From assembly GCA_945868435.1 (NCBI GenBank), contig CAMBLG010000001.1, forward strand, positions 124,001-188,000: a stretch of 64,000 nt of DNA. Reading direction: 5' to 3'. The position numbers were made by a program, and so were the translations under genes. Below the pieces are notes generated by a model. It was not told the DNA's origin and did no database searches. It saw nothing but the letters and a program-made list of their open reading frames with translations. Below are positions 43,454-62,763 of this stretch, in pieces. Position 1 is the stretch's first letter. Every line of letters begins with the position of its first letter. This DNA is from an uncultured Lachnospiraceae bacterium (GTDB lineage Bacteria > Bacillota > Clostridia > Lachnospirales > Lachnospiraceae).

Positions 43454-43470
43454 ACAAAGAGGATAGTTTC

Positions 43471-44622
43471 ATGAGTAAAGGAGCTTTTTTTACAGGGGAA
43501 TACCGCAATGTGTTTGCAGAAGCAGGGTATTCGGAAACAGAAATAGAACAAAGAAAAAATGATATTTTTCAGACTCTGTTTTACGGAACGGAGGAAGAAC
43601 GCATTTTTCATCTATCCGGAGCAGATATGGGATATATGGAGGACACCGGGAATCATGATGCCAGAACAGAAGGCATGTCCTATGGCATGATGATGTGCGT
43701 TCAGATGGATAAAAAAGAGGAGTTTGACAGGCTGTGGAAATGGACAAAAACCTATATGTATATGGATGAGGGCGATAATCAGGGGTATTTTGCCTGGTCG
43801 TGTCAGACGGACGGTACCAAAAACGCTTACGGACCGGCACCGGATGGAGAAGAATTTTTTGCCATGGCACTCATTTTTGCATCTCACCGGTGGGGAGATG
43901 GCGAGGGGATCTTTGCATATAGCAAGGAGGCAAAGGATTTATTACATGTCATGATCCATAAGGGCGAAAATAAAACACCGGGAAGAGCAATGTTTGATCC
44001 GAATCTGAAACTGATCCGGTTTATTACAGATGTGGATTTCTCAGATCCCTCGTACCATTTACCGCATTTCTATGAACTGTTTGGTCGTTATGCATACGAA
44101 GAGGATCGGGACTTTTTCCTGGAAGCGGCAAAGGAAAGCCGGGAATATTTGAAAAAGGCCTGCCATCCGGTAACGGGACTCTGTGCGGAATATGCGGAAT
44201 ATGATGGCACTCCATATACGGAAGGAAGGGAAATCTGGGGCGGACGGCATGACTGGTATTTTAGTGATGCCTATCGGACCATTGCCAATATTGGTCTGGA
44301 TTATGAATGGTTTGGCGTGGATGAATGGGAGCGTGAAGAGGCAGAAAAGCTGCAGAGATTTTTCTGTGAGACATTGAAGGAAGACGAGACCGACAGAATC
44401 TATGAGGTGGATGGAACCATACTGGAGGAAAAAGCGCTGCATCCGGTCGCAATCATTGCAAGCAATGCTCAGGCCAGTCTTGCAGGAAGCGGTGACAATG
44501 CGCTTTCCTGTGTGAAAAAATTCTGGGATACGCCACTTCGTACCGGGGATAGAAGATATTACGATAACTGCCTTTACTTTTTTGCATTTCTTGCATTAAG
44601 TGGAAATTACCGGATTTATTAA
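43471..44622 (+). CDS. Family 8 reducing-end xylose-releasing exo-oligoxylanase (Rex type)
   Basis: A 383-residue cytosolic GH8 enzyme that trims xylose from the reducing end of xylo-oligosaccharides. The proposed acid Glu67 lies in RTEGMSYGMMM, with Asp125 in AYGPAPDGEEFF and a third Asp at 261 or 266 in RHDWYFSDAYR. Spacing agrees with the characterised Bacillus halodurans Rex (Glu70, Asp128, Asp263). There is no signal peptide. It starts 17 bases after the GH3 stop and acts with it: GH3 from the non-reducing end, Rex from the reducing end. Confidence 0.92.
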   Translation: MSKGAFFTGEYRNVFAEAGYSETEIEQRKNDIFQTLFYGTEEERIFHLSGADMGYMEDTGNHDARTEGMSYGMMMCVQMDKKEEFDRLWKWTKTYMYMDEGDNQGYFAWSCQTDGTKNAYGPAPDGEEFFAMALIFASHRWGDGEGIFAYSKEAKDLLHVMIHKGENKTPGRAMFDPNLKLIRFITDVDFSDPSYHLPHFYELFGRYAYEEDRDFFLEAAKESREYLKKACHPVTGLCAEYAEYDGTPYTEGREIWGGRHDWYFSDAYRTIANIGLDYEWFGVDEWEREEAEKLQRFFCETLKEDETDRIYEVDGTILEEKALHPVAIIASNAQASLAGSGDNALSCVKKFWDTPLRTGDRRYYDNCLYFFAFLALSGNYRIY

Positions 44623-44636
44623 ACAGGAGATAACGT

Positions 44637-45587
44637 ATGAGTGTGTATTTTCATTTACCGGGGCTGCGCTATAATTTTCCGCTGAATATGCTTTTGGTGG
44701 ATCTGATGGAGAAATCACCGCAGATGTTCCGGGAAGGAGTCAAGATTGCTTCCATGTTCGGAGAATTTCCGACCTCCAGATGGAATGGTGGAAGATTCAG
44801 CGGAGGGGATCAGTGTGATGCGAAGTATATTCGTGGAGTGATTTCTGCAATTAATGAAAAGGGAATTGCTGTCCGCTATACATATACAAATCCTCTGCTC
44901 AATGAATATGATCTGAAGGATGAATATTGTAATTTCTGCATGAAGGCTGCAGACAATGGTATGAATGAAGTCATTGTTGTGTCTGAACTATTGGAACAAT
45001 ATATCAGAGAAACCTATCCCGCATTTCCGATAACCAGTTCTACATGTAAAGAAATAAAGGATATGGATGCGTTAAATTCTGAACTGCAAAAGGACTACAA
45101 GCTGGTTGTTTTGGATTATAATTTAAATAACAGATTTGAGGTGTTGGAAAAGATTGAGAAGAAAGAGTGTTGTGAACTGTTGGTAAATAGTTGCTGTCAG
45201 CCGGGATGTCCGCGGAGAGGAGAGCATTATCGTTTTATAGCAAAACAGGAAACGATTGCTCTGAAAAACAGAAAAATACCGGCAGATAAACAGATACCGA
45301 TGCCGTGCTGGCATTGTGAATATGGAGAAAACACCACTCTGTCTGTCATTAAGAATTATTCTACACATATTTCCCCTGAGGCAATCTGGGAAAAATATGT
45401 ACCGATGGGATTTCAGAATTTCAAGATTGAAGGAAGAACTGCCAATCTCTTTTTGCTGATAGATACCTACGTGTACTATTTGGCAAAGCCGGAATACAGA
45501 GATGAAGTCCGCTTTCTTTTGACAACAAATCTGCAGGCTCATAAAGTCATTGTAGTAAATAAACCCAAAAGAGGTGTGTGGCCCTAA
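44637..45587 (+). CDS. Cys-rich hypothetical protein, peptidase-U32-like
   Basis: I do not recognise this gene firmly. The 316 residues show a barrel-like pattern reminiscent of U32 proteins: DNGMNEVIVVSELLEQYI, FPITSSTCKEI, then NNRFEVLEKI and LLVNSCCQPGCPRRGEHY. About eleven Cys occur, in DQC, YCNFC, STC, ECC, SCCQPGC and PCWHC. U32 relatives such as UbiU/UbiV hold a 4Fe-4S cluster through four Cys, and the SCCQPGC group is in a similar place, so an iron-sulfur protein is a reasonable inference. No signal peptide. It is the last gene before a terminator in the GH3-GH8 operon; its tie to xylan is unknown. Confidence 0.6.
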   Translation: MSVYFHLPGLRYNFPLNMLLVDLMEKSPQMFREGVKIASMFGEFPTSRWNGGRFSGGDQCDAKYIRGVISAINEKGIAVRYTYTNPLLNEYDLKDEYCNFCMKAADNGMNEVIVVSELLEQYIRETYPAFPITSSTCKEIKDMDALNSELQKDYKLVVLDYNLNNRFEVLEKIEKKECCELLVNSCCQPGCPRRGEHYRFIAKQETIALKNRKIPADKQIPMPCWHCEYGENTTLSVIKNYSTHISPEAIWEKYVPMGFQNFKIEGRTANLFLLIDTYVYYLAKPEYRDEVRFLLTTNLQAHKVIVVNKPKRGVWP

Positions 45588-45596
45588 TCTGCACGT

Positions 45597-45632
45597 AAAA
45601 CCGGTTTCGCAATAAGCGAGGCCGGTTTTTTT
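45597..45632 (+). terminator. Intrinsic terminator ending the first xylan operon
   Basis: AAAACCGGTTTCGC, loop AATAA, GCGAGGCCGGTTTT (two G-T pairs) followed by more T. It separates genes 37173-45587 from the transporter block. Confidence 0.92.
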
Positions 45633-45725: not shown

Positions 45726-46826
45726 GTGAACAGAAAAATTCAGGCACTTTTGTTGGTGGGAAGTATTTCCTTTTGCCTGTGTGGGATGGCGGGCTGCAAC
45801 CGTACATCAGAGGATACGGAGGCTCTGATCATCTTAGAACAGGAGCAGAATGAGGAAGAGTCTCAATACACCTTTGCAGCTGTTACGAGGGATGACATTC
45901 AGGTGGTTAAGAAAATAGAATGTGTATATCAGCAGGCGGATGACAGAGAATTATGTTTCGAAGTCAGCGGTAAAAAAATTGAAGCTGTATATGTAGAGGA
46001 AGGGGATAAGGTTCTAAAAGGGCAGGTGGTGGCAGAACTTTCTCTGGGGGATGTGGATGAAAGGCTGGCAGAAGCGCAGTATCAGTTGGAGAGGAACCAG
46101 CTTTTGTTAGAACAGACGAAGGAAGATGCGTCTTTGGCAATCAAGAATATGGAGAACCTCACAGATGTTTCTGCATTGACAAAAGAGGAAAAGCAAAATT
46201 ATGAGGATTCCATTTCAGCATTAAAGCAGAATTATGAATATCAGATGGAAGATTATCAGGATGCCATTGCCGTTTGGAAACAGAAGTTGTCCGATCTTCA
46301 AATGGAAAAAGGCCAGCAGTATCTGTTGGCAGATATGGATGGAACGGTGGCTTATGTGAAAGAGAACCTGGAGGGTACCTATTCAGTTGCTGATGAGTGT
46401 GTGGTTACAATTATGGATGTTACACAGTGTACATTTTGCTCTGAACAGGTAGAGTTCGCAGATTACTTTGTAGAAGATCAACCGGTGGAAATACAGATCA
46501 GTGGGCAATCCGATCCCTGTTTGGTGGTGCCATATAAGAAGGATTCATGGAATGAGATGATGCAGTTTGTCTTTGCAGATGAATCGGAAAATCAGAATAT
46601 GAGTGTTGGGACCCTTGGAAATATCAGCCTGATTGTGGAAGAGAAAAAACAAGTGTTGACATTGCCTGCAAATGCAGTTCATGAAGCAGACGAAAAATCC
46701 TATGTATATGTGGTTGGAGAGAATGATATCTGGGAGACCAAATGGGTTACCATAGGTCTGAAAGGAAAAGAGAAGGTCGAGATTAAAGAGGGACTGTCAG
46801 AAGGGGATATGGTGATACTGAAATGA
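45726..46826 (+). CDS. HlyD-type membrane fusion lipoprotein (adaptor 1)
   Basis: A 366-residue extracytoplasmic adaptor of the MFP family. The signal peptide ends in the lipobox GMAGC (Cys24). A barrel-sandwich/biotinyl-lipoyl half (KIEAVYVEEGDKVLKGQVVA) is followed by a helical hairpin of about 90 residues (about 115-195), the second lipoyl half ADMDGTVAYVKENLEGTY, and a beta-barrel with VLTLPANAVHEADEKSYVYV. GTG 45726 follows AGGAGGGGG. It overlaps adaptor 2 by 4 bases (ATGA). With the FtsX permease and ATPases behind it, it fits a MacAB-like export or envelope machine. Confidence 0.88.
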   Translation: MNRKIQALLLVGSISFCLCGMAGCNRTSEDTEALIILEQEQNEEESQYTFAAVTRDDIQVVKKIECVYQQADDRELCFEVSGKKIEAVYVEEGDKVLKGQVVAELSLGDVDERLAEAQYQLERNQLLLEQTKEDASLAIKNMENLTDVSALTKEEKQNYEDSISALKQNYEYQMEDYQDAIAVWKQKLSDLQMEKGQQYLLADMDGTVAYVKENLEGTYSVADECVVTIMDVTQCTFCSEQVEFADYFVEDQPVEIQISGQSDPCLVVPYKKDSWNEMMQFVFADESENQNMSVGTLGNISLIVEEKKQVLTLPANAVHEADEKSYVYVVGENDIWETKWVTIGLKGKEKVEIKEGLSEGDMVILK

Positions 46827-48799
46827 GGAAAAATAGGCGGCAGATCATAGCCGCATTAATGGCAGTAATCATGGCGGCTTTATCGGGGTGCGGTAATGCG
46901 GCATCGGAGGAGGCATCCGCGTCTATCGAATTGTTAGAGCCGGTAAACGCAGCATCGAATACAGAGCTGGCTGCATATCGCGATTTTTATGATTATAAAG
47001 TAGTTGCGGGAACGGTATATCCTTATGTACAGGAGTATTCTTTTGATCAGGGGGTTGTTCTTACCGCATATGAAAATGCTCCGGGAGAAACGGTGGAGAA
47101 GGGGAGCGTTCTGGTAAAAGCGGATGATACCTCCGTGCAACAGCAGATCGATGCCATGGAAAAAAATATTGAAAAACTTACGCAGTCTTATGAAGATACG
47201 CAGGATTCTTTCGCAACAGGAAATGGGCAGAGTCAAGAAGAATTGGAGCTGGCGAAAAGGCACAGCGAGGAATTATATCAGTTGGATCTCGAATACAATT
47301 CTTCCTGTCTTGAACGCTTAAAGCAGAAACAGGTATCTTACCAGTTGACTTCCGGAATGAGCGGAACGATTGTATCAACAGGAGCCTATATGCCCGGAAC
47401 CTATGTTGAGGCGGGCACACCGCTTGTGGCAGTTGCAGATGATTCGCAGAAATTATTGAAATGTGAGTATATCAATAAAACGGATGTGGCAAAGTGTGAA
47501 GATCTCTATGCATTTATTCAGGGAAAGCGGTATGAGGTTACCTATCAGCCATATGAGCAGGCGGCATACGATAAAATCATTGCAGAGGGAAATGTGGCAT
47601 ATTCTACTTTTGTTATTGATGATCCCGGGAATGAAATCAAACAGGGCGAATTTGCTGTGCTTACACTTGTATACAGCAGAATGAAACAGGTTTTGTCGAT
47701 ACCGAAGAATGCAGTGCATGAAGATGCAACAGGATCCTATGTTTATTGTGTTGTAAATGGAGTCAATGAGTATACGAAGGTAAAGACAGGAGCCAATGAT
47801 GGTACTTATATAGAGGTTACAGAGGGACTTGAGGCAGGAGATCCGGTGTTGATTGCAGATAGCGTGAACGCAGGTGCAGGGACGACGGAAGTAACCAGAG
47901 GAGATTTCACAAGTGCCTTTGAAGGAAAAGGATTTATAGCGTATCCATTGTCTTATTATGTGACGAATCCGATTGAGTACGGAACTGCCTGCTTCACAGA
48001 ATATAAGGTGGATGTATTTCAGAAGGTTCAGGCCGGAGATGTTATTGCCTGTATTCATGTGAAAGCGGATAATGCGGCAATTTTGGAGGAAAAGCTGCAG
48101 CTTCAGAGAGCCCAGGAACGTCTGCAGGATATGATTGATGCTGGAGAAGAGGCAAAGGTCATCTCTAGAAAAAAAGAATATGTGGAAGAACTGAAGGAAT
48201 CCTTGTCCCAAATGCAGGCGGATTCGGAAACAACTGAAATCAGAGCAGGGGAAAGTGGAATTGTTTTCTGGCTGGAAGATTTATCGGGAGAGGATGAAAT
48301 CAGAAATGGTGCACCAATTGCAATGATTGCAAATGGAAGCCAGTGTTTTCTTACTGTGAAAAATGAAAATCAGCAGCTGAATTACGGAAATAAGGTCTCA
48401 ATCGAATACATGGATCAAAACAGAAAAACGCAGCACGCCGAAGGAACCATAGTGACCATTGGAGCGGCAGGACTCTCCTCTGACTTGAAGCGTGAAGAAG
48501 CGTATATCCGTATTCCGGAAGCTGTGGCAGATTATATTCAGGATAGAGTGGCAGAGGAAAATATTGCGGATTTCTTTAAACAGCCGCAATTCAACATCAA
48601 AACGGAAATCAGAACGGTGTCAGATGTACTGCTCGTCCCCAAAAAAGCAGTGACGGTTTTGAATGGAAAAACCTATGTCTATGTGAAGCATGACGATGGA
48701 ACGATAACAACACAGAACTTTATTGCTGGCGGAAGCAACGAAACCGACTATTGGGTATTGGAAGGATTGGAAGAGGGAATGACAATATGCTTGGAATAA
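46823..48799 (+). CDS. Double-length membrane fusion lipoprotein (adaptor 2)
   Basis: A 658-residue lipoprotein (lipobox LSGC, Cys23) that appears to hold two MFP modules in tandem. Module 1 covers about 30-350 and ends LSIPKNAVHEDATGSYVYCV then GLEAGDPVLIA. Module 2 covers about 355-658 and ends LLVPKKAVTVLNGKTYVYV then GLEEGMTICLE. Each has its own coiled hairpin. The repeated PKKAV/PKNAV...TYVYV signature argues for internal duplication. The start overlaps adaptor 1 and the end overlaps the permease gene by 13 bases. Confidence 0.85.
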   Translation: MRKNRRQIIAALMAVIMAALSGCGNAASEEASASIELLEPVNAASNTELAAYRDFYDYKVVAGTVYPYVQEYSFDQGVVLTAYENAPGETVEKGSVLVKADDTSVQQQIDAMEKNIEKLTQSYEDTQDSFATGNGQSQEELELAKRHSEELYQLDLEYNSSCLERLKQKQVSYQLTSGMSGTIVSTGAYMPGTYVEAGTPLVAVADDSQKLLKCEYINKTDVAKCEDLYAFIQGKRYEVTYQPYEQAAYDKIIAEGNVAYSTFVIDDPGNEIKQGEFAVLTLVYSRMKQVLSIPKNAVHEDATGSYVYCVVNGVNEYTKVKTGANDGTYIEVTEGLEAGDPVLIADSVNAGAGTTEVTRGDFTSAFEGKGFIAYPLSYYVTNPIEYGTACFTEYKVDVFQKVQAGDVIACIHVKADNAAILEEKLQLQRAQERLQDMIDAGEEAKVISRKKEYVEELKESLSQMQADSETTEIRAGESGIVFWLEDLSGEDEIRNGAPIAMIANGSQCFLTVKNENQQLNYGNKVSIEYMDQNRKTQHAEGTIVTIGAAGLSSDLKREEAYIRIPEAVADYIQDRVAEENIADFFKQPQFNIKTEIRTVSDVLLVPKKAVTVLNGKTYVYVKHDDGTITTQNFIAGGSNETDYWVLEGLEEGMTICLE

Positions 48800-51600
48800 T
48801 GCTGCAAAAACTATGGCACAAAAAATGGATGGCATTCAGTCTGCTGTTGGGAATCATCTTGCTGATTGCCACAGCTGTCAGTTTTCCTATGTATCGGGAT
48901 GCCGTGTATAACCGAATGCTTCAGGATGAGTTTCAGCAATATCTCTCTGAAAACGCACAATGGCCTACAGAAAACAAAATGCTGATGGTGTCAAAAAAGG
49001 ATGTCGGAGGAAAGGCTATTTCCAAAATGGAAGCATTTACGGAAGGGCTTTTCGAAGAACTTCAGGTTGTTGGAAAAGATAATATCCGCTATTACAGCCT
49101 TGCCAAAGCGGGAGTGCATTCTCTTATGAATCGAAGTGATCTGTCAGAGGTAGAGGTAAGGCTTGGTTATTTGTCGGATCTTTCGGAACATGTGAGTATA
49201 CTCTCGGGAAGTATGTATTCGGAAAATGGGCTTACAGATGCGGGGGAAATCGAAGTCGTCATCAGTGAGGATGCGATGGTTCATCTGAATCTTCTGGTAG
49301 GAGAAACTCTGGAGTACGATGAGTTTAAGACCAGCGATGGAAGCAAGGTACGACTGAAAATTGTCGGGGTATTTCGGGAAAAGGACAGCAATGATTTTTA
49401 CTGGGAGATTTCATCGGATTCTTTCGAGAATGATTGTTTTATGCAGGAGGACCTGTTTCAAACATATTTCACAGGGGAAAATGCAGGCAATTATACGATT
49501 ACCTGCAGTTACGCTTCCCAGTTTGAATACGACAGTATCGATGCGTCTGATGTGGATTCACTTGTTAAAAAGACAGGGTATCTTTTGAACGAGAGCTCGT
49601 ATCGCGGTACGATGTCCAGACCGGCCTATTATGATATTTTGGAAACGTTTCAGGCAAAGCAGAAGCGGATTGATGCAACGTTATTTATCTTGCAGATTCC
49701 GGTATTGATTTTGCTGGGGGCTTTTCTGTTAATGATCTCCGGACAGATGTATGAGATGGAACGGAACGAAATCTCGGTCATCAAGAGCCGAGGCGCATCA
49801 AGAGGGCAGATTTTCCGTTTGTATCTCTATCAGAGTATTTTCCTCGCGGGAATCGGCTGTGCGGCAGGACTGCCGCTTGGAAGCATTTTTTGCAAACTGC
49901 TTGGTTCCGCAGACAATTTTTTGCAGTTTGGTCTGACAAGAAAATTGGATGCAAGATATACCTTAGATGTAATTTTGTATGCGGTGGCAGCATTTATTGC
50001 CTGTGTCCTGATGATTACGCTGCCTGCAATAAGGCACAGTCGGATGACAATTGTGAATTTAAAGCAGCAGAATGCAATAAAAAAGAAATCCTGGTGGGAA
50101 ACATGTTTTCTTGACATTATTTTTCTGGGAGTTTCCGTCTATGGATATTACAACTATCGGAATCATACTGCAGAGCTGACGGAGCGTGTGTTACAGGGAA
50201 AGGCACTGGATCCGTTGCTCTATATCAGTTCCTCCCTCTTCATTCTTGGGGCAGGACTTCTGGTTCTACGCATTGTGCCGCTTCTGGTAAAGGGGATTTT
50301 CTCCCTTGCAAAAAAATGGTGGAGTCCGGCTGGCTATGCATCCTTGATGGAGATTATAAAAAATGGAAGAAAACAGCAGTTTATCATGTTGTTTTTAATA
50401 TTAACTTTGTCCCTAGGGATGTTTCATGCGACAGTAGCAAGAACGATTATGCAGAATGCAAGGGATAATGAAGCCTATCTGGCTGGAGCGGATCTGGTGC
50501 TTCAGGAGGCTTGGTCGACAAATGCATCCTTTGCTTCTCAGACCGGACAGGTGGAAGAAAAACAGTACATTGAGCCGGATTTTGGAAAGTATAACGCACT
50601 GACGGGAGCCGAATCCTTTACCAAAGTCATTGTAGACCGTGATGCCACAATCCAGATTGGAGATGGTTCCTATGATACAGGAACACTAATGGGAATTCAT
50701 ACCAAAGAGTTCGGTGAAAATACCAGTCTTTCTGATTCTTTATTATCAGAGCCCTATCATCAGCTCTTAAATAAGCTGGCTGTAACTCCGGATGGAGTGC
50801 TTGTGTCAAAAAATTTCAGTACAGATTATGGCATGAAGGAAGGCGATGTCATCCTGTTTAAAAATAAAGATCAAAAGGAAGCCAGGGGAACGATTGTCGG
50901 ATTTGTGGATTATTGGCCGGGCTTTTCCACTCGAAGTATTCTTTTGAATGAAGAGGGGAAGATGCGGGAAACAAATAATTTACTTGTTGTTGCAAACTAT
51001 GCATCTCTGGGGCAGAAATTTGGAGTGACCCCATATCAGGTCTGGATTCGTGTAAAGGATGGATATGACACAGACTTCTTCTATGATTGGATTGAGGAAA
51101 ATGATGTCCCGGTAAAATACTATGTGGACCGGAGCAAACAACTTTCCAAGGTTATGGAGGATCCTTTACTGCAGGGAACCAACGGCGTACTTACTATGAG
51201 TTTTCTGGTCACAATCCTTTTGTGTGCCGCAGGTTATCTGATTTACTGGGTGATGTCAATTCGCCAGAGAGAAATGATGTTCGGCGTTTTACGAGCATGT
51301 GGAATGCACAAGGGCGAGATTTTCCGGATGCTGATTATGGAACAGTTTTTTTCGGGTTTTCTGTCGATTGCAGCAGGATTTGGAATTGGAAAGGCGGCGT
51401 CGAATTTATTTACGGAAATGTTTGAGACAGCTTACGCAGCTGCGGATCAGACGCTTCCTATTAAGCTTGTGACAAGTGCCGGTGATTTGGTGCAGCTGTA
51501 TGGAGTGACCGGAATTGTCATGATTGTATGTTTGGTTATCCTGACGGCTATTGTATTTAAAATGAATATTGCAAAGGCATTGAAGTTAGGAGAAGAGTAA
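48787..51600 (+). CDS. Large FtsX/MacB-type ABC transporter permease
   Basis: A 937-residue membrane protein with about eight to ten segments. The first segment (AFSLLLGIILLIATAVSF) is followed by a large extracytoplasmic domain of about 260 residues. FtsX domain 1 follows (PVLILLGAFLLMISGQMYE, then EISVIKSRGASRGQIF), then a second external domain, and FtsX domain 2 near the C terminus with MMFGVLRACGMHKGEIFRML. Members use ATP hydrolysis in the cytosol to do mechanical work outside. ATG 48787 has AGAGGGA 8 bases upstream. It shares base 51600 with the next gene. Confidence 0.9.
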   Translation: MLGIMLQKLWHKKWMAFSLLLGIILLIATAVSFPMYRDAVYNRMLQDEFQQYLSENAQWPTENKMLMVSKKDVGGKAISKMEAFTEGLFEELQVVGKDNIRYYSLAKAGVHSLMNRSDLSEVEVRLGYLSDLSEHVSILSGSMYSENGLTDAGEIEVVISEDAMVHLNLLVGETLEYDEFKTSDGSKVRLKIVGVFREKDSNDFYWEISSDSFENDCFMQEDLFQTYFTGENAGNYTITCSYASQFEYDSIDASDVDSLVKKTGYLLNESSYRGTMSRPAYYDILETFQAKQKRIDATLFILQIPVLILLGAFLLMISGQMYEMERNEISVIKSRGASRGQIFRLYLYQSIFLAGIGCAAGLPLGSIFCKLLGSADNFLQFGLTRKLDARYTLDVILYAVAAFIACVLMITLPAIRHSRMTIVNLKQQNAIKKKSWWETCFLDIIFLGVSVYGYYNYRNHTAELTERVLQGKALDPLLYISSSLFILGAGLLVLRIVPLLVKGIFSLAKKWWSPAGYASLMEIIKNGRKQQFIMLFLILTLSLGMFHATVARTIMQNARDNEAYLAGADLVLQEAWSTNASFASQTGQVEEKQYIEPDFGKYNALTGAESFTKVIVDRDATIQIGDGSYDTGTLMGIHTKEFGENTSLSDSLLSEPYHQLLNKLAVTPDGVLVSKNFSTDYGMKEGDVILFKNKDQKEARGTIVGFVDYWPGFSTRSILLNEEGKMRETNNLLVVANYASLGQKFGVTPYQVWIRVKDGYDTDFFYDWIEENDVPVKYYVDRSKQLSKVMEDPLLQGTNGVLTMSFLVTILLCAAGYLIYWVMSIRQREMMFGVLRACGMHKGEIFRMLIMEQFFSGFLSIAAGFGIGKAASNLFTEMFETAYAAADQTLPIKLVTSAGDLVQLYGVTGIVMIVCLVILTAIVFKMNIAKALKLGEE

Positions 51601-52280
51601 TGAAAAAATTAATTGAGATATCACATGTGAACCGGGTATTTTCCATCGTTGGTGGAGAGTTTCAGGCATTAAAAGATATCAATGCTTCCATAGAGGAAGG
51701 AACGCTTACAATATTGAAGGGGCGTTCTGGATCCGGAAAGACAACACTGATGAATATTGCCAGTGCGCTGGATTTCCCGACCTCCGGAACGGTGTGTATT
51801 GGTGGAAATGATATTACAAAAATGTCGGAAACAGAAAGAGAAAACATGAGAAGAAGGGATTTTGGATTCGTGTTTCAGGCAGTATCTCTGATCCCCACAA
51901 TGAATGCATTTCAAAATGTGGAGTTTTCGCTTCGGATGGCTGGTATTAAAGATAACCGGAAAGAACGAGTGGAAGAGTGCCTAAAGAGGGTAGGTCTGGG
52001 AAGCAGGATGAAGCATATGCCGTCGGAGATGTCCGGTGGTGAACAGCAGCGCGTGGCAATTGCGCGTGCTATTGCACATCATCCGAGAATCCTGTTTGCG
52101 GATGAGCCTACTGCGGAATTGGACAGTTCCATGGCTGCGGAGGTAGTCCGGATGTTTCAGGAGATTACAAGAGAAGAGCATTTAACGATTCTCATGACGA
52201 CACATGATACAGGGCTTATGGATGCCGGAGATATGGTGATTGAACTTCAGAATGGAGAGCAGATATGTCAGACGCAATGA
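51600..52280 (+). CDS. ABC transporter ATP-binding protein (LolD/MacB type)
   Basis: A 226-residue ATPase. Walker A GRSGSGKTTLMNIA is near residue 40, the Q-loop FGFVFQAVSLIPTMNA follows, then the signature MSGGEQQRVAIARAI and Walker B ILFADEPTAELDS, with the switch His in TTHD. This is the pattern of ATPases that pair with FtsX permeases. Its start overlaps the permease stop by one base, and its end overlaps the next ATPase by 16 bases. Together the two ATPases may form a heterodimer. Confidence 0.94.
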   Translation: MKKLIEISHVNRVFSIVGGEFQALKDINASIEEGTLTILKGRSGSGKTTLMNIASALDFPTSGTVCIGGNDITKMSETERENMRRRDFGFVFQAVSLIPTMNAFQNVEFSLRMAGIKDNRKERVEECLKRVGLGSRMKHMPSEMSGGEQQRVAIARAIAHHPRILFADEPTAELDSSMAAEVVRMFQEITREEHLTILMTTHDTGLMDAGDMVIELQNGEQICQTQ

Positions 52281-53161
52281 TACAGGCAGATGGTCTTGTG
52301 AAAATATATAAGACAAAGCAGACAGAAGTACTTGCGCTTCAGGGGCTTGACCTTACGGTGGAAGAAGGGGAACTGACCGCCCTGATTGGTAACAGTGGCA
52401 GCGGTAAATCTACTTTTCTGAACATGATTGGAGGGTTGGATCGCCCAAGTGCAGGAAGTCTTATGGTTTGTGGAAAGAATCTCTTTAAAATGAGTGAGAA
52501 GGAGCTTGTGGCATACAAAAGAGATACCGTTGGTTTTGTATGGCAGAATAATGGAAGGAATCTGCTGCCGTACTTGTCTGTGCTGGAAAACATAATGCTT
52601 CCCATGAACTTGAAAGATACGAAGAAAAAGAAGGAAAAGGCATTAGAACTGTTGGATCGGGTAGGGTTATCATCGAAGAAAAACAGTCGTATGAACATGA
52701 TGTCGGGAGGGGAACAGCAGCGGGTTGCCATTGCTATTGCACTGGCAAATTCACCGAAAATTCTGTTGGCGGATGAGCCCACCGGAAGTGTGGACACAAA
52801 GACGGCTGATATGATTTTTGATATTTTTACAGAACTGAATCGAGAAGGACAGACGATATTGATTGTTACCCATGATGTCGCATTGTCAAAGAAGGTAAAA
52901 CGTGTGGTGGCAATCCGGGATGGCAAAATCAGCAGTGAAAGAATCCTGAAGGAAAAGTATGCAGACCGCTTGAAAGAAATTACAGTGGACTGGAGAAATG
53001 AGGAGACGCAGGAAGAATATGTGATTGTAGACAAGGTGGGACGCGTCCAGATACCGCGTGAGATTCTGGATCATCTGAGTCTTAAGGATAATAAAGTAAA
53101 GCTTGAGTTTCAGGATGGGAAAGTGGTAATCAGCGCACCGGAGGAATTGAAGGGAGAATGA
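52265..53161 (+). CDS. ABC transporter ATPase with C-terminal AbrB-like domain
   Basis: A 298-residue ATPase. Walker A is GNSGSGKSTFLNMI near residue 41, the signature MSGGEQQRVAIAIAL, Walker B LLADEPTGSVDT, and the switch His in VTHD. About 40 residues after the usual end comes VDKVGRVQIPREILDHL, then VKLEFQDGKVVISAPE (about 253-294), which has the form of an AbrB/MazE swapped-hairpin domain. It might serve for dimerisation or for binding DNA. The stop overlaps the start of the GH43 lipoprotein gene (ATGA), linking hydrolase and transporter expression. Confidence 0.9.
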   Translation: MSDAMIQADGLVKIYKTKQTEVLALQGLDLTVEEGELTALIGNSGSGKSTFLNMIGGLDRPSAGSLMVCGKNLFKMSEKELVAYKRDTVGFVWQNNGRNLLPYLSVLENIMLPMNLKDTKKKKEKALELLDRVGLSSKKNSRMNMMSGGEQQRVAIAIALANSPKILLADEPTGSVDTKTADMIFDIFTELNREGQTILIVTHDVALSKKVKRVVAIRDGKISSERILKEKYADRLKEITVDWRNEETQEEYVIVDKVGRVQIPREILDHLSLKDNKVKLEFQDGKVVISAPEELKGE

Positions 53162-54807
53162 GAAAGCAAAACAGATTCAGTCACGGTTTGTTAAAAAAAA
53201 TTTTATTTGTGCATCTGTCAGTATTTCTGACATTGAGCATCTGCAGTTGTGGAGCAGAGAAGGAAAAAGCTGTACAACCGGAAAATGTGGAAAGTGAATC
53301 CACGGAATTTAGTAAGAAAGAAGAAGGAGAGAACAAGAACATGACAACAGCAGAGATGGAAAAAGTATTTGAAAATGTAGTCCCAAAGAAGGCGTATAAA
53401 GGAATTGGAAATCATAATCCGGTTATGACACAGCGGTACGGAGCAGACCCTTATGCTTTGGTTTATGACGGCCGTGTGTACCTTTATATGACCTGTGACG
53501 AACCTATGTTGGATGCCAATGGAGAAATTAAGGAAAATGATTATTCCAATATTTATAAGATCAATGTGATATCATCAGCAGATTTAGTAAATTGGACGGA
53601 TCATGGCAGTGTTTATGCCTCTTCCGAAAAAGGTGCAGCAACTTGGGGAAATAATTCCTGGGCACCGGCAGCCGCATATAAAGAAATTGATGGAAAGATG
53701 AAGTTTTTCCTTTATTTTGCCAATGGAGGAAATGGAATTGCCGTATTGTCAAGTGACAGCCCGACTGGTCCATTTACAGACCCGATTGGAGAAGCCTTGA
53801 TTTCCAGAGATATGCCCACCTGTGCAGAGGTTACATGGCTGTTTGATCCGGCGGTGTTAATGGATGATGACGGAAACGCTTATATTTACTTTGGCGGTGG
53901 AGTCCCAAGCGAGGACAAAGTTTCCAATCCCGGTACTGCACGTGTAGCAAAGCTTGGGGAGGATATGATTAGCCTTGATGGAGACCCGGTTGTAATTGAA
54001 AATGTTTCCTATCTGTTTGAGGACTCCGGCATCAATAAGATCAACGGAACTTATTATTATTCCTACTGTTCTAACTTTAATGTACCGGAAGATCGTGCAG
54101 ATGAAATCGGTTTTCACTGCGGTGAGATTATCACTATGTCAAGTGATAATCCAATGGGGCCATTTACTTTATGTGGTCCGATCTTAAAGAATCCACAGTA
54201 TTATTTTGGACGTGGCGGAAATAATCATCACTGTATGTTTGAATTTGAGGGACAGCTTTATATGTCCTATCACACCAGGCAGTTGGAAGAGGCCATAGGA
54301 ATCAATAAGGGCTATCGAAGTACAAATATTGATAAGGTGACATTAGACTCTAATGGAAACATTGAAATGATTCAGGGAACGACAGCAGGAGTAGAGCAGG
54401 TAGGATCCCTCAATCCGTATGAGAAAGTAAGGGCAGTTACCATGGGAATCATGGCAGGTGTTGAAACGACACAGTTTGGAGAGGATAGTGTAAAAACAGG
54501 CTCCGGTGATATGATTGTAACAGGAATCCATGATGGAAGCTGGATTGGCGTATACGGTGCAGACTTCGGCGCAGCGGGGGCAGAGGAATTTCATGTTTCG
54601 GCGAGAGGAACGGAGACAGGATATATCAAAATCTGTCTGGATTCTCCGGAAGGGGAAGTAATCGGCTATGCAGAACTGGACACAAAGGATGCTGTAAACT
54701 TTCATGAATTCGTTGCCGGATTAGAGAAGAAGGTTTCCGGAAAGCATGATCTCTACTTTGTGTTCAGCGGTGATAATTTTGAACTGGAATACTGGTATTG
54801 TAGATAG
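53158..54807 (+). CDS. GH43-CBM6 lipoprotein, probable arabinoxylan arabinofuranohydrolase
   Basis: Surface-anchored debranching enzyme of 549 residues. The signal peptide ends in a lipobox-like LSICSC (Cys31), followed by a Glu-rich linker. The GH43 five-bladed propeller has GADPYALVYDGRVYLY (base Asp), WLFDPAVLMDDDGNAYIYF, and FEDSGINKINGTYYYSY (acid Glu). The sequence strongly recalls Bacillus XynD, which removes arabinose from arabinoxylan. A CBM6-type domain fills about 440-549 and ends NFELEYWYC. The start overlaps the ATPase by 4 bases. It is the only glycosidase in the transporter operon. Confidence 0.9.
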   Translation: MRKQNRFSHGLLKKILFVHLSVFLTLSICSCGAEKEKAVQPENVESESTEFSKKEEGENKNMTTAEMEKVFENVVPKKAYKGIGNHNPVMTQRYGADPYALVYDGRVYLYMTCDEPMLDANGEIKENDYSNIYKINVISSADLVNWTDHGSVYASSEKGAATWGNNSWAPAAAYKEIDGKMKFFLYFANGGNGIAVLSSDSPTGPFTDPIGEALISRDMPTCAEVTWLFDPAVLMDDDGNAYIYFGGGVPSEDKVSNPGTARVAKLGEDMISLDGDPVVIENVSYLFEDSGINKINGTYYYSYCSNFNVPEDRADEIGFHCGEIITMSSDNPMGPFTLCGPILKNPQYYFGRGGNNHHCMFEFEGQLYMSYHTRQLEEAIGINKGYRSTNIDKVTLDSNGNIEMIQGTTAGVEQVGSLNPYEKVRAVTMGIMAGVETTQFGEDSVKTGSGDMIVTGIHDGSWIGVYGADFGAAGAEEFHVSARGTETGYIKICLDSPEGEVIGYAELDTKDAVNFHEFVAGLEKKVSGKHDLYFVFSGDNFELEYWYCR

Positions 54808-55055: not shown

Positions 55056-56990
55056 GTGGGAAACATGAGAGCAAAGAAGGTAAGGGAAAAAATACTGGCA
55101 GTGTTGTTGGCAGTTACAGTTGTTGTGGGATTTGTAGGAGGGCAGGTAATGCAGGTGATGGCAGAAGGGCGGAACTCTGCTTATGTGGATACGAGTGATT
55201 ACGAGCAGTTGGATGAACTTTATGGGGATTACTTTTTAATGGGGGCAGCCTGCCAGGCAATCGATCACTGGAACGACCCTACTGCGGAAATTGGAAATGA
55301 AGACAAAGAGAAACTGTTGTCAACCCAATTTAACAGCATGACCTTTGGAAACGAATTGAAACCGGCATACAATTTTGATCCTTCCTCTAAAAACTTATTC
55401 AAGGTGGATTTTGCGGCAGAAGAAATGCTTGACTGGGCAAAAGAAAATGGAATGAAGGTCAGAGGGCACGTGTTGGTATGGCACAGTCAGGTGGATCCAT
55501 CCATTTTTGCGGTGGATTTTCAGGCATATTCCGATGGAAAAATGACAAGATCAGATACGGCTAAGTTAGATGAAGCATGTCTGGTGGACAGAGAAGAATT
55601 ATTGGCTCGGTTAAAACAATATATTTACGGGGCAATGGAGTACACCTATCAGAATGGTTACGCAGACATCATTTATGCGTGGGACGTGGTGAACGAGGCT
55701 GCAGATGAAAATCAGTTGGACGGATTGCGAAGAAGCTACTGGTATCAGATTATCGGACCGGATTATCTCTATTATGCATTCCTGTACGCAAGAGAAGCGG
55801 AAATGACGTATTCACACGAGTACGCATCCCTATATGGTCTGAATGCCGAGACAGATGATCTTTCTCCTATTCAGCCCAAATTATTTTACAACGATTACAA
55901 TGAATGGTATGACTCCCGAAGTGATGCAATTATTCATTTCCTGACAGAAGAAGCGTGGAATGAAAATCATGAGAAGGTCACGAGTCCAGTGATCAATCCC
56001 AATGGAGACGGCACGATTTATGGAGATGGTCTCTTAGATGGAATCGGTTTGCAGGGACATCTGGATGATACACAGAATATTGAAAAGTATATGGCTGCAT
56101 TGGAAAAGTACAATGCAGCTGTGCCGGAACTTCATATTACAGAGCTGGATGTAGGGCGAACCGGCACCGATACGAATGCAAATTACTATCAGGCAAAATT
56201 CTATTATGATTTTTTCTCACGTTTGATCCGTGAGGTTGAAAATGGTGTGAATCTGACATCCGTGACATTGTGGGGGTTGACGGATGATGCCTCCTGGAGA
56301 AGGGATGCCAATCCACTGCTCTTTAATAGAGATTTGTCAAAAAAGCCTGCATTTGAGGCTATGGTAATGGCTGCGAAGAGGGAGGAGTTCTCATTGAAAC
56401 CGGAGGAAATTGCAGTCGAGGCAAAGGATCTGATCGTCACTTTTGAGCCTTATCAGGAAGATGGGAAAACGAAGACTGTAACACCGCAGGATATTGGTGC
56501 AGTCAGCCGTGGAAGCGGCCATCAGTCGGTTATTGATATTGTAAATGAGGAAAATCATACGGAGGGTGCGCCTATTGGTTTCTGTCTGCGTGTCAGAAGA
56601 AATGAAGCGGATGCTTCCGTGAAGATGGATGTGTCTTCCTATATTGGAAAAACAGTTCAAATAACTGCATTCGTAAAGACGCAGGATAAGAAGATTAGAA
56701 TGGGCTTAGACCTGGTGGAGTCGGAGCTTCTTACAGAACAGAAAGCGGCGGACGACTGGGTAGAATTATCAGCAGTATGTACAATCCGGGAAGGGATAAA
56801 CTCTGCATACCTGTATTTTGAAACAGATGGAAATGCTGATTTTTATCTGGATGATATTTCTATTGTGTGTCAGGACGGGGATTCTGGGGTGACGGACTCG
56901 GGAGCTTCTTCAGAGCAAATACAGAAAAAAATAAATCTTTGGGAAGGAATTAAAGCTTTTTTCCTTGGAGGGGTTCATTATGGAAAATAA
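55056..56990 (+). CDS. Secreted family 10 endo-beta-1,4-xylanase
   Basis: Endo-xylanase of 644 residues that cuts the xylan backbone outside the cell. A signal peptide (KILAVLLAVTVVVGFVGG) precedes a GH10 barrel (about 50-450). The acid/base Glu214 is in WDVVNEA and the nucleophile Glu363 in HITELDVG; VRGHVLVWHSQ is also conserved. Residues about 460-615 form a beta-sandwich resembling CBM22/CBM9-type modules. There is no sortase, SLH or lipid anchor; the chain ends in a hydrophobic-basic tail (LWEGIKAFFLGGVHYGK). GTG 55056 is preceded by GGAG at 8 bases; ATG 55065 is an alternative. Confidence 0.94.
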   Translation: MGNMRAKKVREKILAVLLAVTVVVGFVGGQVMQVMAEGRNSAYVDTSDYEQLDELYGDYFLMGAACQAIDHWNDPTAEIGNEDKEKLLSTQFNSMTFGNELKPAYNFDPSSKNLFKVDFAAEEMLDWAKENGMKVRGHVLVWHSQVDPSIFAVDFQAYSDGKMTRSDTAKLDEACLVDREELLARLKQYIYGAMEYTYQNGYADIIYAWDVVNEAADENQLDGLRRSYWYQIIGPDYLYYAFLYAREAEMTYSHEYASLYGLNAETDDLSPIQPKLFYNDYNEWYDSRSDAIIHFLTEEAWNENHEKVTSPVINPNGDGTIYGDGLLDGIGLQGHLDDTQNIEKYMAALEKYNAAVPELHITELDVGRTGTDTNANYYQAKFYYDFFSRLIREVENGVNLTSVTLWGLTDDASWRRDANPLLFNRDLSKKPAFEAMVMAAKREEFSLKPEEIAVEAKDLIVTFEPYQEDGKTKTVTPQDIGAVSRGSGHQSVIDIVNEENHTEGAPIGFCLRVRRNEADASVKMDVSSYIGKTVQITAFVKTQDKKIRMGLDLVESELLTEQKAADDWVELSAVCTIREGINSAYLYFETDGNADFYLDDISIVCQDGDSGVTDSGASSEQIQKKINLWEGIKAFFLGGVHYGK

Positions 56991-58557
56991 TATCAATCCG
57001 ATTATAAAACTTGATTATCCGGATGCGGATGTGATACGCGTGGAAGATACCTACTATATGGTAAGTACAACCATGCATTTTATGCCGGGATGTGAAATTT
57101 TACGATCGTATGATCTTGTTCACTGGGAGCATGCGGCCTATGTATATGACAGGTTGGACAGCACACCGGGACAGAGGCTCCTGGAGAATCAAAGTATATA
57201 TGGAAAAGGAATGTGGGCGGCAAGCCTGCGTTACCATAAGGGCATTTATTATGTTTGTTTTGTAGCAAATGATACAGGAAAAACGTATTTATATCAATCC
57301 CCGGATATTCATGGACCATGGAAGAAGCAGACAATCGAAGGCTTTTATCATGACTGCTCGCTGTTGTTTGATGATGATGACAGAGTCTATATTGCATCCG
57401 GAAATAAGGATATCCGTCTGGTGGAGTTAAAATCGGATTTGAGTGGACCAAAGACGGGTGGAATTGACCGGATTGTTGTCAGTGATGAGGGCAATCCAAA
57501 CCTTGGCTACGAAGGAACCCATTTTTATAAAGTGAATGGAAAGTACTACTTGTTCTTTATTCATTCCCTGCGTAATGAGTGGAAGCGTGTAGAGGCATGT
57601 TTTACGTCAGACTCTCTGGAAGGGGAATTTGTGGGCGGTGATGTGTTGAACGATGACAGGGGGTATTGTAATCAGGGCGTGGCCCAGGGCGGAATTGTTG
57701 ATACACCGGATGGCCGGTGGTATGCGGTTTTGTTTCAGGATCACGGCGCAGTGGGAAGAATCCCTGTATTACTTCCGGTGAGCTGGGAAAAGGATTATCC
57801 TGTATTTGGCGAAAACGGAACGATACCGGAGATGTTTGACACAGAAAGCACCAGAAAAGGGTATGAATACCGTCCGTTGGTAGAGTGTGATGACTTCCGG
57901 AACCGGGGAAACATTGTAGATGCAGCCTCTGACCGCATGACGGTGAATGAAGCATTTGATTCCTTTGGACTCAAAAGCTGTTGGCAGTGGAATCATGAGC
58001 CGAAGCTGGAACTTGTCACAAATGATTGCGAAAAGGGATATTTGACAATTACTACCGGAAAGATTTGCCGAAATGTCACACAGGCGAACAATGTATTGAC
58101 ACAAAGAATGCGGTTCCCAACATGCAGCGGAGAGATTACGGTAGATGGATCAAGCCTTAATGAAGGGGATTATGCAGGTATCTGTGCATTCCAGGGATGT
58201 TACGGAATGGTGGCTCTGACCAAGCGGGATGGCAGATATTGTGTGGTAATGCATGAAAGACCGGCAGAGAACGCTCTGTTACAGGCAATGAAAGCGGATA
58301 CTGAGGAAGAAATCGAAAGAGCATGTATTCCCTTGGAAAGCACCAGAGTCCGATTAAAGATAGAAGTTGATTTTGATCATATGAAGGATGAAGCGATTTT
58401 TTCTTATGATGATGGCTTTGGCTGGAAATCCATTGGAATTCCAAAGAAACTGTATTTTAAGCTGGACCACTTTACCGGCTGTCGTTTCGGACTGTTTGTA
58501 TATGCGACAAAGAATGTCGGAGGAAGTGCATCGTTTTCAGATTTTCTGTATGTATAA
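56980..58557 (+). CDS. Cytosolic GH43 beta-xylosidase/alpha-L-arabinofuranosidase
   Basis: A 525-residue intracellular GH43 enzyme with a C-terminal beta-sandwich of the kind seen in GH43 xylosidases. The propeller opens with DYPDADVIRVEDTYYMVSTT (base Asp) and carries the acid Glu in LGYEGTHFYKVNGKYYLF; the sandwich starts at about residue 325 (WQWNHEP). No signal peptide. ATG 56980 has GGAGGGG just upstream and overlaps the GH10 end by 11 bases. A close paralogue lies at 62764. It should remove xylose or arabinose from imported oligosaccharides. Confidence 0.92.
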   Translation: MENNINPIIKLDYPDADVIRVEDTYYMVSTTMHFMPGCEILRSYDLVHWEHAAYVYDRLDSTPGQRLLENQSIYGKGMWAASLRYHKGIYYVCFVANDTGKTYLYQSPDIHGPWKKQTIEGFYHDCSLLFDDDDRVYIASGNKDIRLVELKSDLSGPKTGGIDRIVVSDEGNPNLGYEGTHFYKVNGKYYLFFIHSLRNEWKRVEACFTSDSLEGEFVGGDVLNDDRGYCNQGVAQGGIVDTPDGRWYAVLFQDHGAVGRIPVLLPVSWEKDYPVFGENGTIPEMFDTESTRKGYEYRPLVECDDFRNRGNIVDAASDRMTVNEAFDSFGLKSCWQWNHEPKLELVTNDCEKGYLTITTGKICRNVTQANNVLTQRMRFPTCSGEITVDGSSLNEGDYAGICAFQGCYGMVALTKRDGRYCVVMHERPAENALLQAMKADTEEEIERACIPLESTRVRLKIEVDFDHMKDEAIFSYDDGFGWKSIGIPKKLYFKLDHFTGCRFGLFVYATKNVGGSASFSDFLYV

Positions 58558-58606
58558 GCAGTAAACAGTGTACTGTATCATTCAGGAAAGAGGAATGGAG
58601 AGTATC

Positions 58607-60853: not shown

Positions 60854-60902
60854 TAAAATAAAAGACAGATGTGTATATGAATTTAGCATGGAGGACAAGA
60901 GA

Positions 60903-62705
60903 ATGTATTTATTAAATTATTCAAGGGAGCCAATTAGTGCAGAATTGTATGATGCAAGGCTTGCATACAGCATGCATCTTGCAATCAGTGAGGATGGGGT
61001 TAATTATCAGGCGCTGAATCATAATTCCGGCGTGTTATTTGTGAAAGCTACAGAAAATGAAGATGGCTCTCTGAATCCCAAAAGTATGAAAAATCCATAC
61101 ATATTTTCATTAAAAGAAGAAGGGTATGGAGTTATGGCAGTCCGCACAGGAGCGGATGGAGAGGATGATGAAGAGAGCAGAGGCTGTGCAGTATTGTTCG
61201 TGACAAAGGATTTTCTGGAATATCAGGAGCTTGGATTGTTACCGTTAGAAGAACAGTATGTAGAAGAAATCATCTGTGAATATGAAGATGGAAGCTATGT
61301 GGTAAGATGGAAAAATCGTGACGGAATCTGCAGTGTTGGACAGACATCGGATATCCGGAAAAAAGAACTGGATTCTGTAGTTTCCATGGCAGGAGAAGAA
61401 CTATTCCAAAAGGATAAGACATTGCCGATAGACACAGGGATTGAAGGTGCCGTACTTCATAACCGGATTGAAGTACCGGATAACGTTGCAGACCGATTGA
61501 AAAAAAAGTTTCTGACACCGGTAAATACCGGCGTATCCTTTCCGGAGCAGATTACAGCATCAGACAGCAGCGAACTGGAAAGCTTTTTGGCAACATTAAG
61601 TTATAGTGATGGAACTATGGTTCAGAGAAGGGTAGACTGGGAATTATCTGATGTGAGTTTTCAGGTGGAAGGAACCTACAGGATCTGTGGAACGATACAT
61701 CAGGATCATTTTCCGTTTCCAATTGCAGAAAATCGTGCGGATCCATGTGTCGGAAAATGGAACGGAAAATATTATTTTATCGCAACCAATGATGCCGACG
61801 GAAACAGATCAATCTATGTCCGGGAAGCGGATACGATACCGGGACTTTTGACAGCAGAAGAAAAGTTGATTTTGGATTGTGAGACTTATCCGGAAATTGG
61901 CGGACTTTTATGGGCTCCGGAGTTTCATGAGATCAACGGAACGCTATATATTTTTCATGCGGCTACCACGGGAGAGTTTTACTGGGAAGAAAGTCATGTG
62001 ATGCAGTTGAGAGAAGGCGGCAATCCGGCAAAGAAGGAAGACTGGTCAAGACCAAGGCGAGTGGTAAAAAAAGACGGAAGCGAGCTTTGCGAAGCCGGAA
62101 AAGAGATTACTCTGGATATGACCTGTTTTGAATGGCAGGGAGAGTATTATGTGGTCTGGTCGCAGCGTCAGTTTTTACCGAAGGATTTAGGCGCGTGGCT
62201 TTATATTGCAAAACTGAATCCCGAGGAACCATGGAAATTACTGAGTGATCCGGTCCTGCTTTCCAAACCGGAGTATGGATGGGCAAATAATCATACATTT
62301 GTCGACGAAGGTCCGTTTTCGTTGATTGCAGGTGATACCTTATATCTGACTTTTTCCAGTGCCGCAGTTGATTCCTCTTACGTTGTGGGGCTTTTGCAAA
62401 TTGAGAAGGGTAAAGATTTATTGGTGAGAGAAAACTGGAAGAAAACCAATTATCCGCTTCTGACATCCCGGAGTGTGGCAGGGGAGTTTGGAACAGGGCA
62501 TAACGCGTATGTGACGGATGAGGATGGTTTGGTGTGGAATACCTATCATGCAAGACCTGGGGTTGATGGTGTGCGCAGTAGTGGAATCCGCAGAGTACAT
62601 TTTGATATCGACGGTGCGCCAATGCTGGATGTGACAGAAGAACTGGATGTGGCGGAACAATACAAATCAGTTGAAACGGTACTGGTTGTAAAAAAGAAAA
62701 AATGA
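60903..62705 (+). CDS. Cytosolic multidomain GH43 protein with N-terminal accessory region
   Basis: A 600-residue protein. Residues 1-170 resemble GH43-associated beta structure without clear catalytic residues. About 205-270 looks like a bacterial Ig-like (Big_4) module (LSYSDGTMVQRRVDWELSD). The GH43 propeller proper starts near 280 with ENRADPCVGKWNGKYYF (base Asp), LLWAPEFHEINGTLYIF, and HTFVDEGPFSLIAGDTLYL (acid Glu). No signal peptide. ATG 60903 was chosen because GGAGGA lies 7 bases upstream; longer readings to 60825 overlap the GH95 gene. Probably an alpha-L-arabinofuranosidase; specificity not readable. Confidence 0.82.
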   Translation: MYLLNYSREPISAELYDARLAYSMHLAISEDGVNYQALNHNSGVLFVKATENEDGSLNPKSMKNPYIFSLKEEGYGVMAVRTGADGEDDEESRGCAVLFVTKDFLEYQELGLLPLEEQYVEEIICEYEDGSYVVRWKNRDGICSVGQTSDIRKKELDSVVSMAGEELFQKDKTLPIDTGIEGAVLHNRIEVPDNVADRLKKKFLTPVNTGVSFPEQITASDSSELESFLATLSYSDGTMVQRRVDWELSDVSFQVEGTYRICGTIHQDHFPFPIAENRADPCVGKWNGKYYFIATNDADGNRSIYVREADTIPGLLTAEEKLILDCETYPEIGGLLWAPEFHEINGTLYIFHAATTGEFYWEESHVMQLREGGNPAKKEDWSRPRRVVKKDGSELCEAGKEITLDMTCFEWQGEYYVVWSQRQFLPKDLGAWLYIAKLNPEEPWKLLSDPVLLSKPEYGWANNHTFVDEGPFSLIAGDTLYLTFSSAAVDSSYVVGLLQIEKGKDLLVRENWKKTNYPLLTSRSVAGEFGTGHNAYVTDEDGLVWNTYHARPGVDGVRSSGIRRVHFDIDGAPMLDVTEELDVAEQYKSVETVLVVKKKK

Positions 62706-62763
62706 ACCGTCAGCGAATGAAAACCTGCGATGGATACAAGTGATAGAAAAAATGGAGGTGTTT

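What the first reader, a model, noticed from the sequence alone, without database searches (positions are those of the whole stretch)
45726..54807. MacAB-like export or mechanotransmission system coupled to a GH43 lipoprotein
Two lipoprotein adaptors, a 937-residue FtsX permease, two ATPases and a surface arabinofuranosidase form one chain of overlapping genes (overlaps of 4, 13, 1, 16 and 4 bases). FtsX-type transporters usually do work outside the membrane, not sugar import. A glycosidase made in fixed ratio with such a machine suggests a new way to present, release or remodel surface xylan-degrading proteins, or to remove antimicrobial compounds met on plant material. This is the best candidate for an undescribed system here.
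Basis: partly seen in the sequence, partly recalled or inferred. Interest (0 to 1): 0.7.

Follow-up and report, generated by a model that had tools for sequence, protein, structure and literature searches.

The report
Xylan-locus envelope pump, three-part adaptor
A gut bacterium keeps, inside its gene cluster for digesting plant xylan, a membrane machine built like drug-export pumps but with three different adaptor parts and an odd tail on its motor; the pairing recurs in many related bacteria and what the machine moves is unknown.

Summary
The six genes and all five overlaps are real. The five ABC genes form a Type VII (MacB-family) machine: a YbbP-type permease (10 TM, two outer domains; best Foldseek match E. 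coli YbbP), two ATPases, and MacA-like lipoprotein adaptors. (1) The second adaptor gene is a fusion of two; in 26 loci with three separate adaptor genes the order matches in 21. (2) ATPase 2 ends in an AbrB/MazE-like domain; in 150 genomes all 23 strong matches sit beside this permease. (3) The xylan link is not chance: 72 of 87 close loci (two contigs counted twice) lie by glycosidases, sugar transporters or a U32-like gene, against 6 of 53 distant ones. But the glycosidase next door usually has no export signal (21 of 26), and 52 of 53 distant sets have no recognised glycosidase. So a machine that handles the surface GH43 is not supported; a xylan-locus accessory pump, load unknown, fits best. 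New variant of a known kind. There are no expression, substrate or knockout data here.

The parts
45597..45632 (+). terminator-like hairpin with T-run between the U32-like gene and the ABC operon
   Evidence: -25.1 kcal/mol, shuffles -9.8 sd 2.6, z -6.0; sequence; not listed
45726..46826 (+). adaptor 1 (HlyD/MacA-like lipoprotein, 366 aa)
   Evidence: RND_mfp 1.8e-22, under cut-off; signal, lipobox pattern
46823..48799 (+). fused adaptors 2+3 (lipoprotein, 658 aa)
   Evidence: AlphaFold pLDDT 86; best fold match MacA
47129..47335 (+). helical hairpin of adaptor 2 (residues 103-171)
   Evidence: model
48071..48229 (+). helical hairpin of adaptor 3 (residues 417-469)
   Evidence: model
48787..51600 (+). 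FtsX/YbbP-type double permease, 937 aa, 10 TM
48970..49590 (+). first extracytoplasmic domain of the permease (residues 62-268)
   Evidence: model
50494..51129 (+). second extracytoplasmic domain of the permease (residues 570-781)
   Evidence: model; MacB, LolC and YknZ outer domains align here
51600..52280 (+). ATPase 1 (226 aa, LolD/DevA/FtsE type)
52265..53161 (+). ATPase 2 (298 aa, LolD type) with C-terminal tail
52988..53158 (+). AbrB/MazE-like tail of ATPase 2
   Evidence: E 0.02-0.03; 37 of 57 members match PF04014
53158..54807 (+). GH43-CBM6 lipoprotein, 4-base overlap with ATPase 2
44637..45587 (+). U32-like protein, frequent neighbour of the set in relatives
   Evidence: (PF01136 E 0.0033, under cut-off)
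41315..44622 (+). GH3 and GH8 of the same xylan cluster
55056..63999 (+). GH10, GH43, GH95, GH43 and a GH43-like gene cut by the window end; AraC regulator and two sugar ABC transporters follow beyond the window
   Evidence: last gene and the continuation by similarity, locus L157

Best explanation
It is a Type VII (MacB-superfamily) ABC machine in which the usual like halves are replaced by unlike ones: one double permease in place of a dimer, ATPase 1 + ATPase 2, and three different adaptors (1 + fused 2-3). Two copies of the adaptor trio would give the six units of a MacA-like ring over one permease (inferred). ATP binding in the cytoplasm moves the two outer domains and the adaptor funnel, so that work is done outside the membrane; it should not be a sugar importer (inferred from the superfamily). 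In this Lachnospiraceae clade it has been placed in the xylan locus, most likely as an accessory that clears amphiphilic or membrane-active compounds met while cells sit on plant fibre (for example phenolic esters or peptides) from the outer membrane face and the space under the wall. Shown: architecture, clade-wide xylan context. Inferred: ring stoichiometry, direction, co-expression. Guessed: the load.
Against: No expression, phenotype or substrate data. Genome-level statistics are not corrected for kinship; genomes with 40-44% copies also have more GH10 (12 of 16 vs 54 of 380) although those copies mostly lie away from xylan genes, which could be kinship. 8 of 75 well-flanked close loci have no carbohydrate neighbour. 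Two-component genes also lie near 9 of 87 close loci. Nothing in the sequence points to phenolics. Context labels came from similarity to window and xylan-locus proteins, so other glycosidases beside distant sets could be missed. Exported glycosidases do follow ATPase 2 in 5 of 26.
Confidence: 0.45

Rival explanations
1. The machine acts on the locus's own surface proteins: it extracts, releases or positions lipoprotein glycosidases and sugar-binding proteins (LolCDE-like).
For: GH43-CBM6 is a predicted lipoprotein that overlaps ATPase 2 by 4 bases; exported GH10 follows ATPase 2 in 3 loci; the permease folds like LolC/E too.
Against: 21 of 26 glycosidases directly after ATPase 2 have no export signal; 52 of 53 distant sets have no recognised glycosidase. 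A LolA-like carrier was not searched for.
Confidence: 0.13
2. Uptake aid: it helps large decorated xylan fragments through the wall zone to the CUT1 importer.
For: CUT1 permeases, binding proteins or DUF5696 lie within ten genes in 63 of 87 close loci; the window's continuation has two such sets.
Against: The parts read of PMC5985334 (abstract, sections 13 and 17) describe no Type VII member as an importer; relatives exist without any recognised sugar genes (47 of 53).
Confidence: 0.12
3. YbbAP-TesA analogue: the permease hands an amphiphilic substrate to an attached hydrolase, here GH43-CBM6.
For: Closest solved permease by Foldseek is YbbP, proposed to present hydrophobic compounds to TesA (PMC12646458, abstract and discussion read).
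Against: GH43-CBM6 is directly downstream only in the window and L094; adaptors would occupy the TesA site (inference).
Confidence: 0.06
4. Passenger: a general envelope machine that happens to lie in xylan loci and shares no task with them.
For: Distant relatives sit beside what look like housekeeping genes (addAB, recR/dnaX, murI, ackA-pta; names recalled from sequence starts) in no constant company; family spread over Clostridia (27 of 196 genomes, 25 of them outside the window's family).
Against: Association kept across a clade with 47-70% permease identity to the window and changing gene order.
Confidence: 0.2
5. Sensor: like BceAB, it reports flux or a bound ligand to a regulator, with the AbrB-like tail as the signalling part.
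Against: Helix residues that I recall as DNA contacts of AbrB are not kept apart from one arginine; no two-component pair was seen in the window cluster.
Confidence: 0.04

Closest known systems
E. coli YbbAP-TesA (PMC12646458)
   Same: Double permease, 10 TM helices, two outer domains, separate ATPase; top Foldseek match
   Different: Here three adaptors and no TesA-type partner seen, two different ATPases, AbrB-like tail; 13% identity
MacAB-TolC
   Same: MacA-like adaptors; MacB-type outer domains
   Different: Fused permease; three adaptor types; lipid-anchored adaptors; no outer membrane duct expected
Gram-positive MacAB-like systems YknXYZ and Spr0693-0695 (PMC5985334 section 13)
   Same: Adaptor + MacB-type permease + separate ATPase in a Gram-positive
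   Different: Those have one adaptor, a single-unit permease and one ATPase
BceAB(S)
   Same: Fused 10-TM permease; highest VIA Z
   Different: One outer domain, no adaptors; acts with a sensor kinase
TriABC (two different adaptors for one RND pump; recalled)
   Same: Unlike adaptors share one pump; entry 6vej, an RND adaptor, matched the adaptor profile
   Different: RND pump, two adaptors, Gram-negative
Gram-positive PUL of Roseburia/E. rectale (PMC5320581, passages read)
   Same: Locus of glycosidases, sugar ABC transporter and regulator
   Different: The word FtsX has 0 occurrences in that paper and the 12 passages seen mention no MacB-type machine

Membership tests
Type VII ABC (MacB superfamily) | FtsX/MacB-type permease fold with outer domain on long stalk helices | tested here: met
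   PF02687 6.6e-22, two stretches; model and fold matches
Type VII ABC (MacB superfamily) | mechanotransmission: ATP-driven movement, no transport across the membrane | not testable with these tools
   needs biochemistry
YbbP-type permease | two MacB units fused, two linking helices, two outer domains | tested here: met
   helices and domains; 9ge6/9ge7 top Foldseek rows
YbbAP-TesA system | TesA-type hydrolase partner in the gene set | tested here: not met
   six-gene unit holds GH43-CBM6, no such hydrolase; a GDSL-type gene lies further off in L157 by similarity
MacAB-TolC tripartite pump | MacA-like adaptor | tested here: met
MacAB-TolC tripartite pump | outer membrane duct TolC | not tested
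   Lachnospiraceae taken as monoderm (recall); no TolC search was made
YknXYZ/Spr0693-0695 type | one adaptor gene, single-unit permease, one ATPase | tested here: not met
BceAB | single large outer domain, no adaptors | tested here: not met
   two outer domains and adaptors
LolCDE | lipoprotein extraction with LolA | not testable with these tools
   fold similarity only
AbrB/MazE swapped-hairpin domain (ATPase 2 tail) | profile match | tested here: met
   37 of 57 tails scanned (56 of the 63 distinct locus tails, plus the window) match PF04014 at E<=0.01, best 3e-6; MraZ 22 of 57; MazE and AbrB chains in PDB at E 0.002-0.09. The window's own tail alone: none at 0.01, 0.02-0.03
AbrB/MazE swapped-hairpin domain (ATPase 2 tail) | DNA binding | not testable with these tools
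   no assay; tail not modelled
Gram-positive PUL (definition in PMC5320581) | polysaccharide-degrading enzyme + carbohydrate transporter + regulator | tested here: met
   GH3, GH8, GH10, GH43, GH95; AraC and two CUT1 sets in L157 by similarity to Pfam-scanned representatives

The most novel reading that the evidence does not exclude
The first Type VII ABC machine dedicated to polysaccharide use: a six-unit funnel of three unlike adaptors that handles decorated xylan fragments or their phenolic parts at the cell surface for the neighbouring importer, with an ATPase whose AbrB-like tail reports its activity to the locus or joins machines in pairs.
Probability: 0.12. Interest if true: 0.8.

Novelty: new variant of a known kind. 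Interest (0 to 1): 0.5.

Why it matters
Gut and rumen fibre degraders are described by their enzymes and importers. Here a large, costly envelope machine is a regular part of their xylan loci, which suggests that living on plant fibre needs an extracytoplasmic machine not counted so far. The asymmetric build (three adaptors, two ATPases, one permease) and a tail of DNA-binding-domain type on an ABC ATPase are handles for asking how Type VII machines work one half at a time.

Tried and rejected
Surface glycosidase as fixed partner: rejected by the downstream-gene survey. Paralogues in the window's genome: none at E<=1e-5. U32-like gene on the same transcript: unlikely in the window, hairpin in between. 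U32-like family against UbiV: nothing; against UbiU: weak colinear match ending in a KIEGR-type motif (probability 0.8%, E 0.067); against PDB sequences: nothing better than E 0.55; Pfam U32 in 7 of 20 members.

Literature, listings only (titles and starts of abstracts): xylan/Roseburia/FtsX/ABC transporter, 20 of 104 listed; ROSINTL182+xylan, 4 of 4 (31); FtsX/HlyD/MacB, 4 of 4 (32); YbbAP+TesA, 2 of 2 (41); AbrB with ABC transporter, 10 of 80 (55); peptidase U32+xylan, 2 of 2 (69); Butyrivibrio/xylan/macrolide/HlyD, 11 of 11 (70); hydroxycinnamic efflux, 8 of 18 (91); type VII ABC with Lachnospiraceae/AbrB/xylan, 10 of 1,377 (101). No listed title describes this set; subscription papers are not held.

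Outside Lachnospiraceae gene calls were poor: of 15 loci (of 27 genomes matched), 7 showed an ATPase with tail beside the permease at E<=1e-4 (8 in the looser), 8 did not.

Limits and dropped rows: one search kept the best 80 of 108 loci. Of the places, G231, G396 and second copies or fragments in G461 and G471 were not fetched. Left out: L121 and L136 (permease gene not recovered), L095 (copy of L016), L157, and short L001-L013; 5 broken permeases left out of the tree. Profiles A1-A4 used 17, 21, 17 and 20 chosen sequences. Promoter and terminator scan: no excess over shuffles (33 vs 30.1; 7 vs 9.1).

Full report
Observation. The six genes lie where stated, with overlaps of 4, 13, 1, 16 and 4 bases. 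A strong hairpin with T-run stands before the first gene and a 248-base gap follows the last, so the unit may be one transcript; this is not shown.

Surroundings. The window lies in a Lachnospiraceae genome (G000, 2.57 Mb, 37 contigs, 84% complete; family from the records of its relatives). From about 37 kb on it is a xylan cluster: esterase + deacetylase, LacI-like sensor with GGDEF, DUF4867, GH3, GH8, U32-like, the ABC set, GH43-CBM6, GH10, GH43, GH95, GH43 and a GH43-like gene (the last by similarity). Beyond the window follow an AraC regulator, a CBM-bearing binding protein, MalF/MalG-like permeases, a binding protein, Yip1, DUF5696 and a second MalF/MalG/binding-protein set (L157, labels by similarity; Pfam of cluster representatives, where the representative of the second binding protein had no Pfam match).

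Three adaptors. Many relatives have three separate HlyD genes. Scored with profiles of adaptor 1 and the two halves of the fused gene, 26 such loci give 1, 2N, 2C in order in 21; in 5 the third gene scores higher with adaptor 1, by 3 to 37 bits. So the fused gene is adaptors 2 and 3, and the machine keeps three kinds. Two trios would make the six units known for MacA; that is inference.

ATPase tail. The family copies printed (every third row and the window) end in a domain with the pattern D-x-x-x-R-V/L/I-Q-I/L. 37 of 57 tails scanned match MazE_antitoxin and 22 MraZ; PDB sequences hit are MazE, AbrB, MraZ and SpoVT, but also SRP54 and pyrrolidone-carboxylate peptidase. In 150 genomes 23 strong matches (E<=1.4e-14) lie beside the permease, one in each of the 23 genomes of that sample that have it (places compared by eye; the second permease copy of G157, without called ATPases in L139, has no tail match); three weak ones (E 3e-6 to 5e-5) lie in other frames and were not followed.

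Context test. 142 loci with a usable permease gene were compared: 87 at >=47% identity, 2 at 44-46, 18 at 38-43, 35 below. Within ten genes, glycosidases stand by 54, 1, 1 and 0; U32-like genes by 52, 0, 0 and 0; any xylan-type gene by 72, 1, 4 and 2. Twelve of the 87 have fewer than nine genes besides the permease (its own partners included); of the other 75, 67 have the context and 8 do not (L040, L041, L048, L051, L070, L074, L092, L106). An independent check with the Pfam GH43 profile in 63 genomes (listing cut near E 7e-30) puts GH43 within 10 kb of the permease in 6 of 9 genomes with a >=45% copy (G000, G052, G194, G393, G471, G481; not G129, G283, G335) and in 1 of 54 others (G269) (compared by eye). 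With 17 GH43 matches in the 4.5 Mb genome G052, at most about 8% of that genome lies within 10 kb of one (my arithmetic). In 396 evenly drawn family genomes the permease family occurs in 52; GH10 in 7 of 8 with a >=45% copy vs 59 of 388, in 12 of 16 with 40-44% vs 54 of 380, in 6 of 28 below 40% vs 60 of 368. None of this corrects for kinship; on the permease tree (137 rows, FastTree) the context needs 10 changes against 41 in shuffles.

Against a glycosidase machine. Directly after the set stand, in 87 close loci: U32-like 19, GH43 16, unlabelled 14, CBM-binding protein 8, an ABC/DUF1854 unit 7, AraC on the other strand 7, contig end 6, GH10 4, GH8 4, GH43-CBM6 2. Of the 26 glycosidases, 21 lack a hydrophobic N-terminus by a simple threshold (a GH10, L072, and a borderline GH43, L085, may have wrong starts). 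So the coupling is with the locus, not with one enzyme.

Deeper family. Sets at 29-43% identity are spread over Lachnospiraceae and other Clostridia (27 of 196 class genomes, up to four copies in one) in varied places; the group below 38% has DUF6034 lipoproteins in 11 of 35 (0 of 107 others) and two-component genes in 11 of 35 (9 of 87 and 1 of 20 in the others). This speaks for an older general envelope task that one clade tied to xylan use (inference; the tree is not rooted).

Function. From the superfamily (PMC5985334 abstract, sections 13 and 17; PMC12646458 abstract and discussion) the machine should do work outside the membrane on amphiphilic or membrane-bound loads. I take a protective or clearing role during growth on fibre as most likely (0.45 for the whole statement); the load itself is a guess. 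No paper in the listings seen describes the set (searches in Tried and rejected).

Noticed in passing
window 44637-45587; L014-L093: U32-like protein (CxPxCxxRxxHY and FKxxGR motifs), often as a tandem pair of two types, tied to xylanase: relatives at >=50% identity in 23 of 396 genomes, 22 of them with GH10, against 44 of the other 373 (not corrected for kinship). UbiU/UbiV-type U32 enzymes are iron-sulphur hydroxylases (recall); a role in xylan use is unexplained and may be more novel than the pump.
   Followed up: partly
L100, L103, L104, L141-L143 and others: DUF6034 lipoproteins, in up to three tandem copies, beside the most distant members of the machine (11 of 35 loci, none of 107 others).
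   Followed up: partly
L018, L019, L020, L023, L044, L070, L080: A DUF1854 gene between two exporter-sized ABC genes (about 600-820 aa) directly after ATPase 2 in seven close relatives.
   Followed up: no
window 38685-40610: LacI-type sugar-binding domain fused to GGDEF in the xylan cluster: a possible sugar-to-c-di-GMP link.
   Followed up: no
window 37173-38627: Esterase (PF00756) fused to polysaccharide deacetylase (PF01522), without export signal by the simple test.
   Followed up: no
L025 14808-17738 and relatives (c11): 977-aa sugar-binding protein with CBM35 and CBM6 regions before a sugar-permease pair; a copy lies in L157.
   Followed up: no
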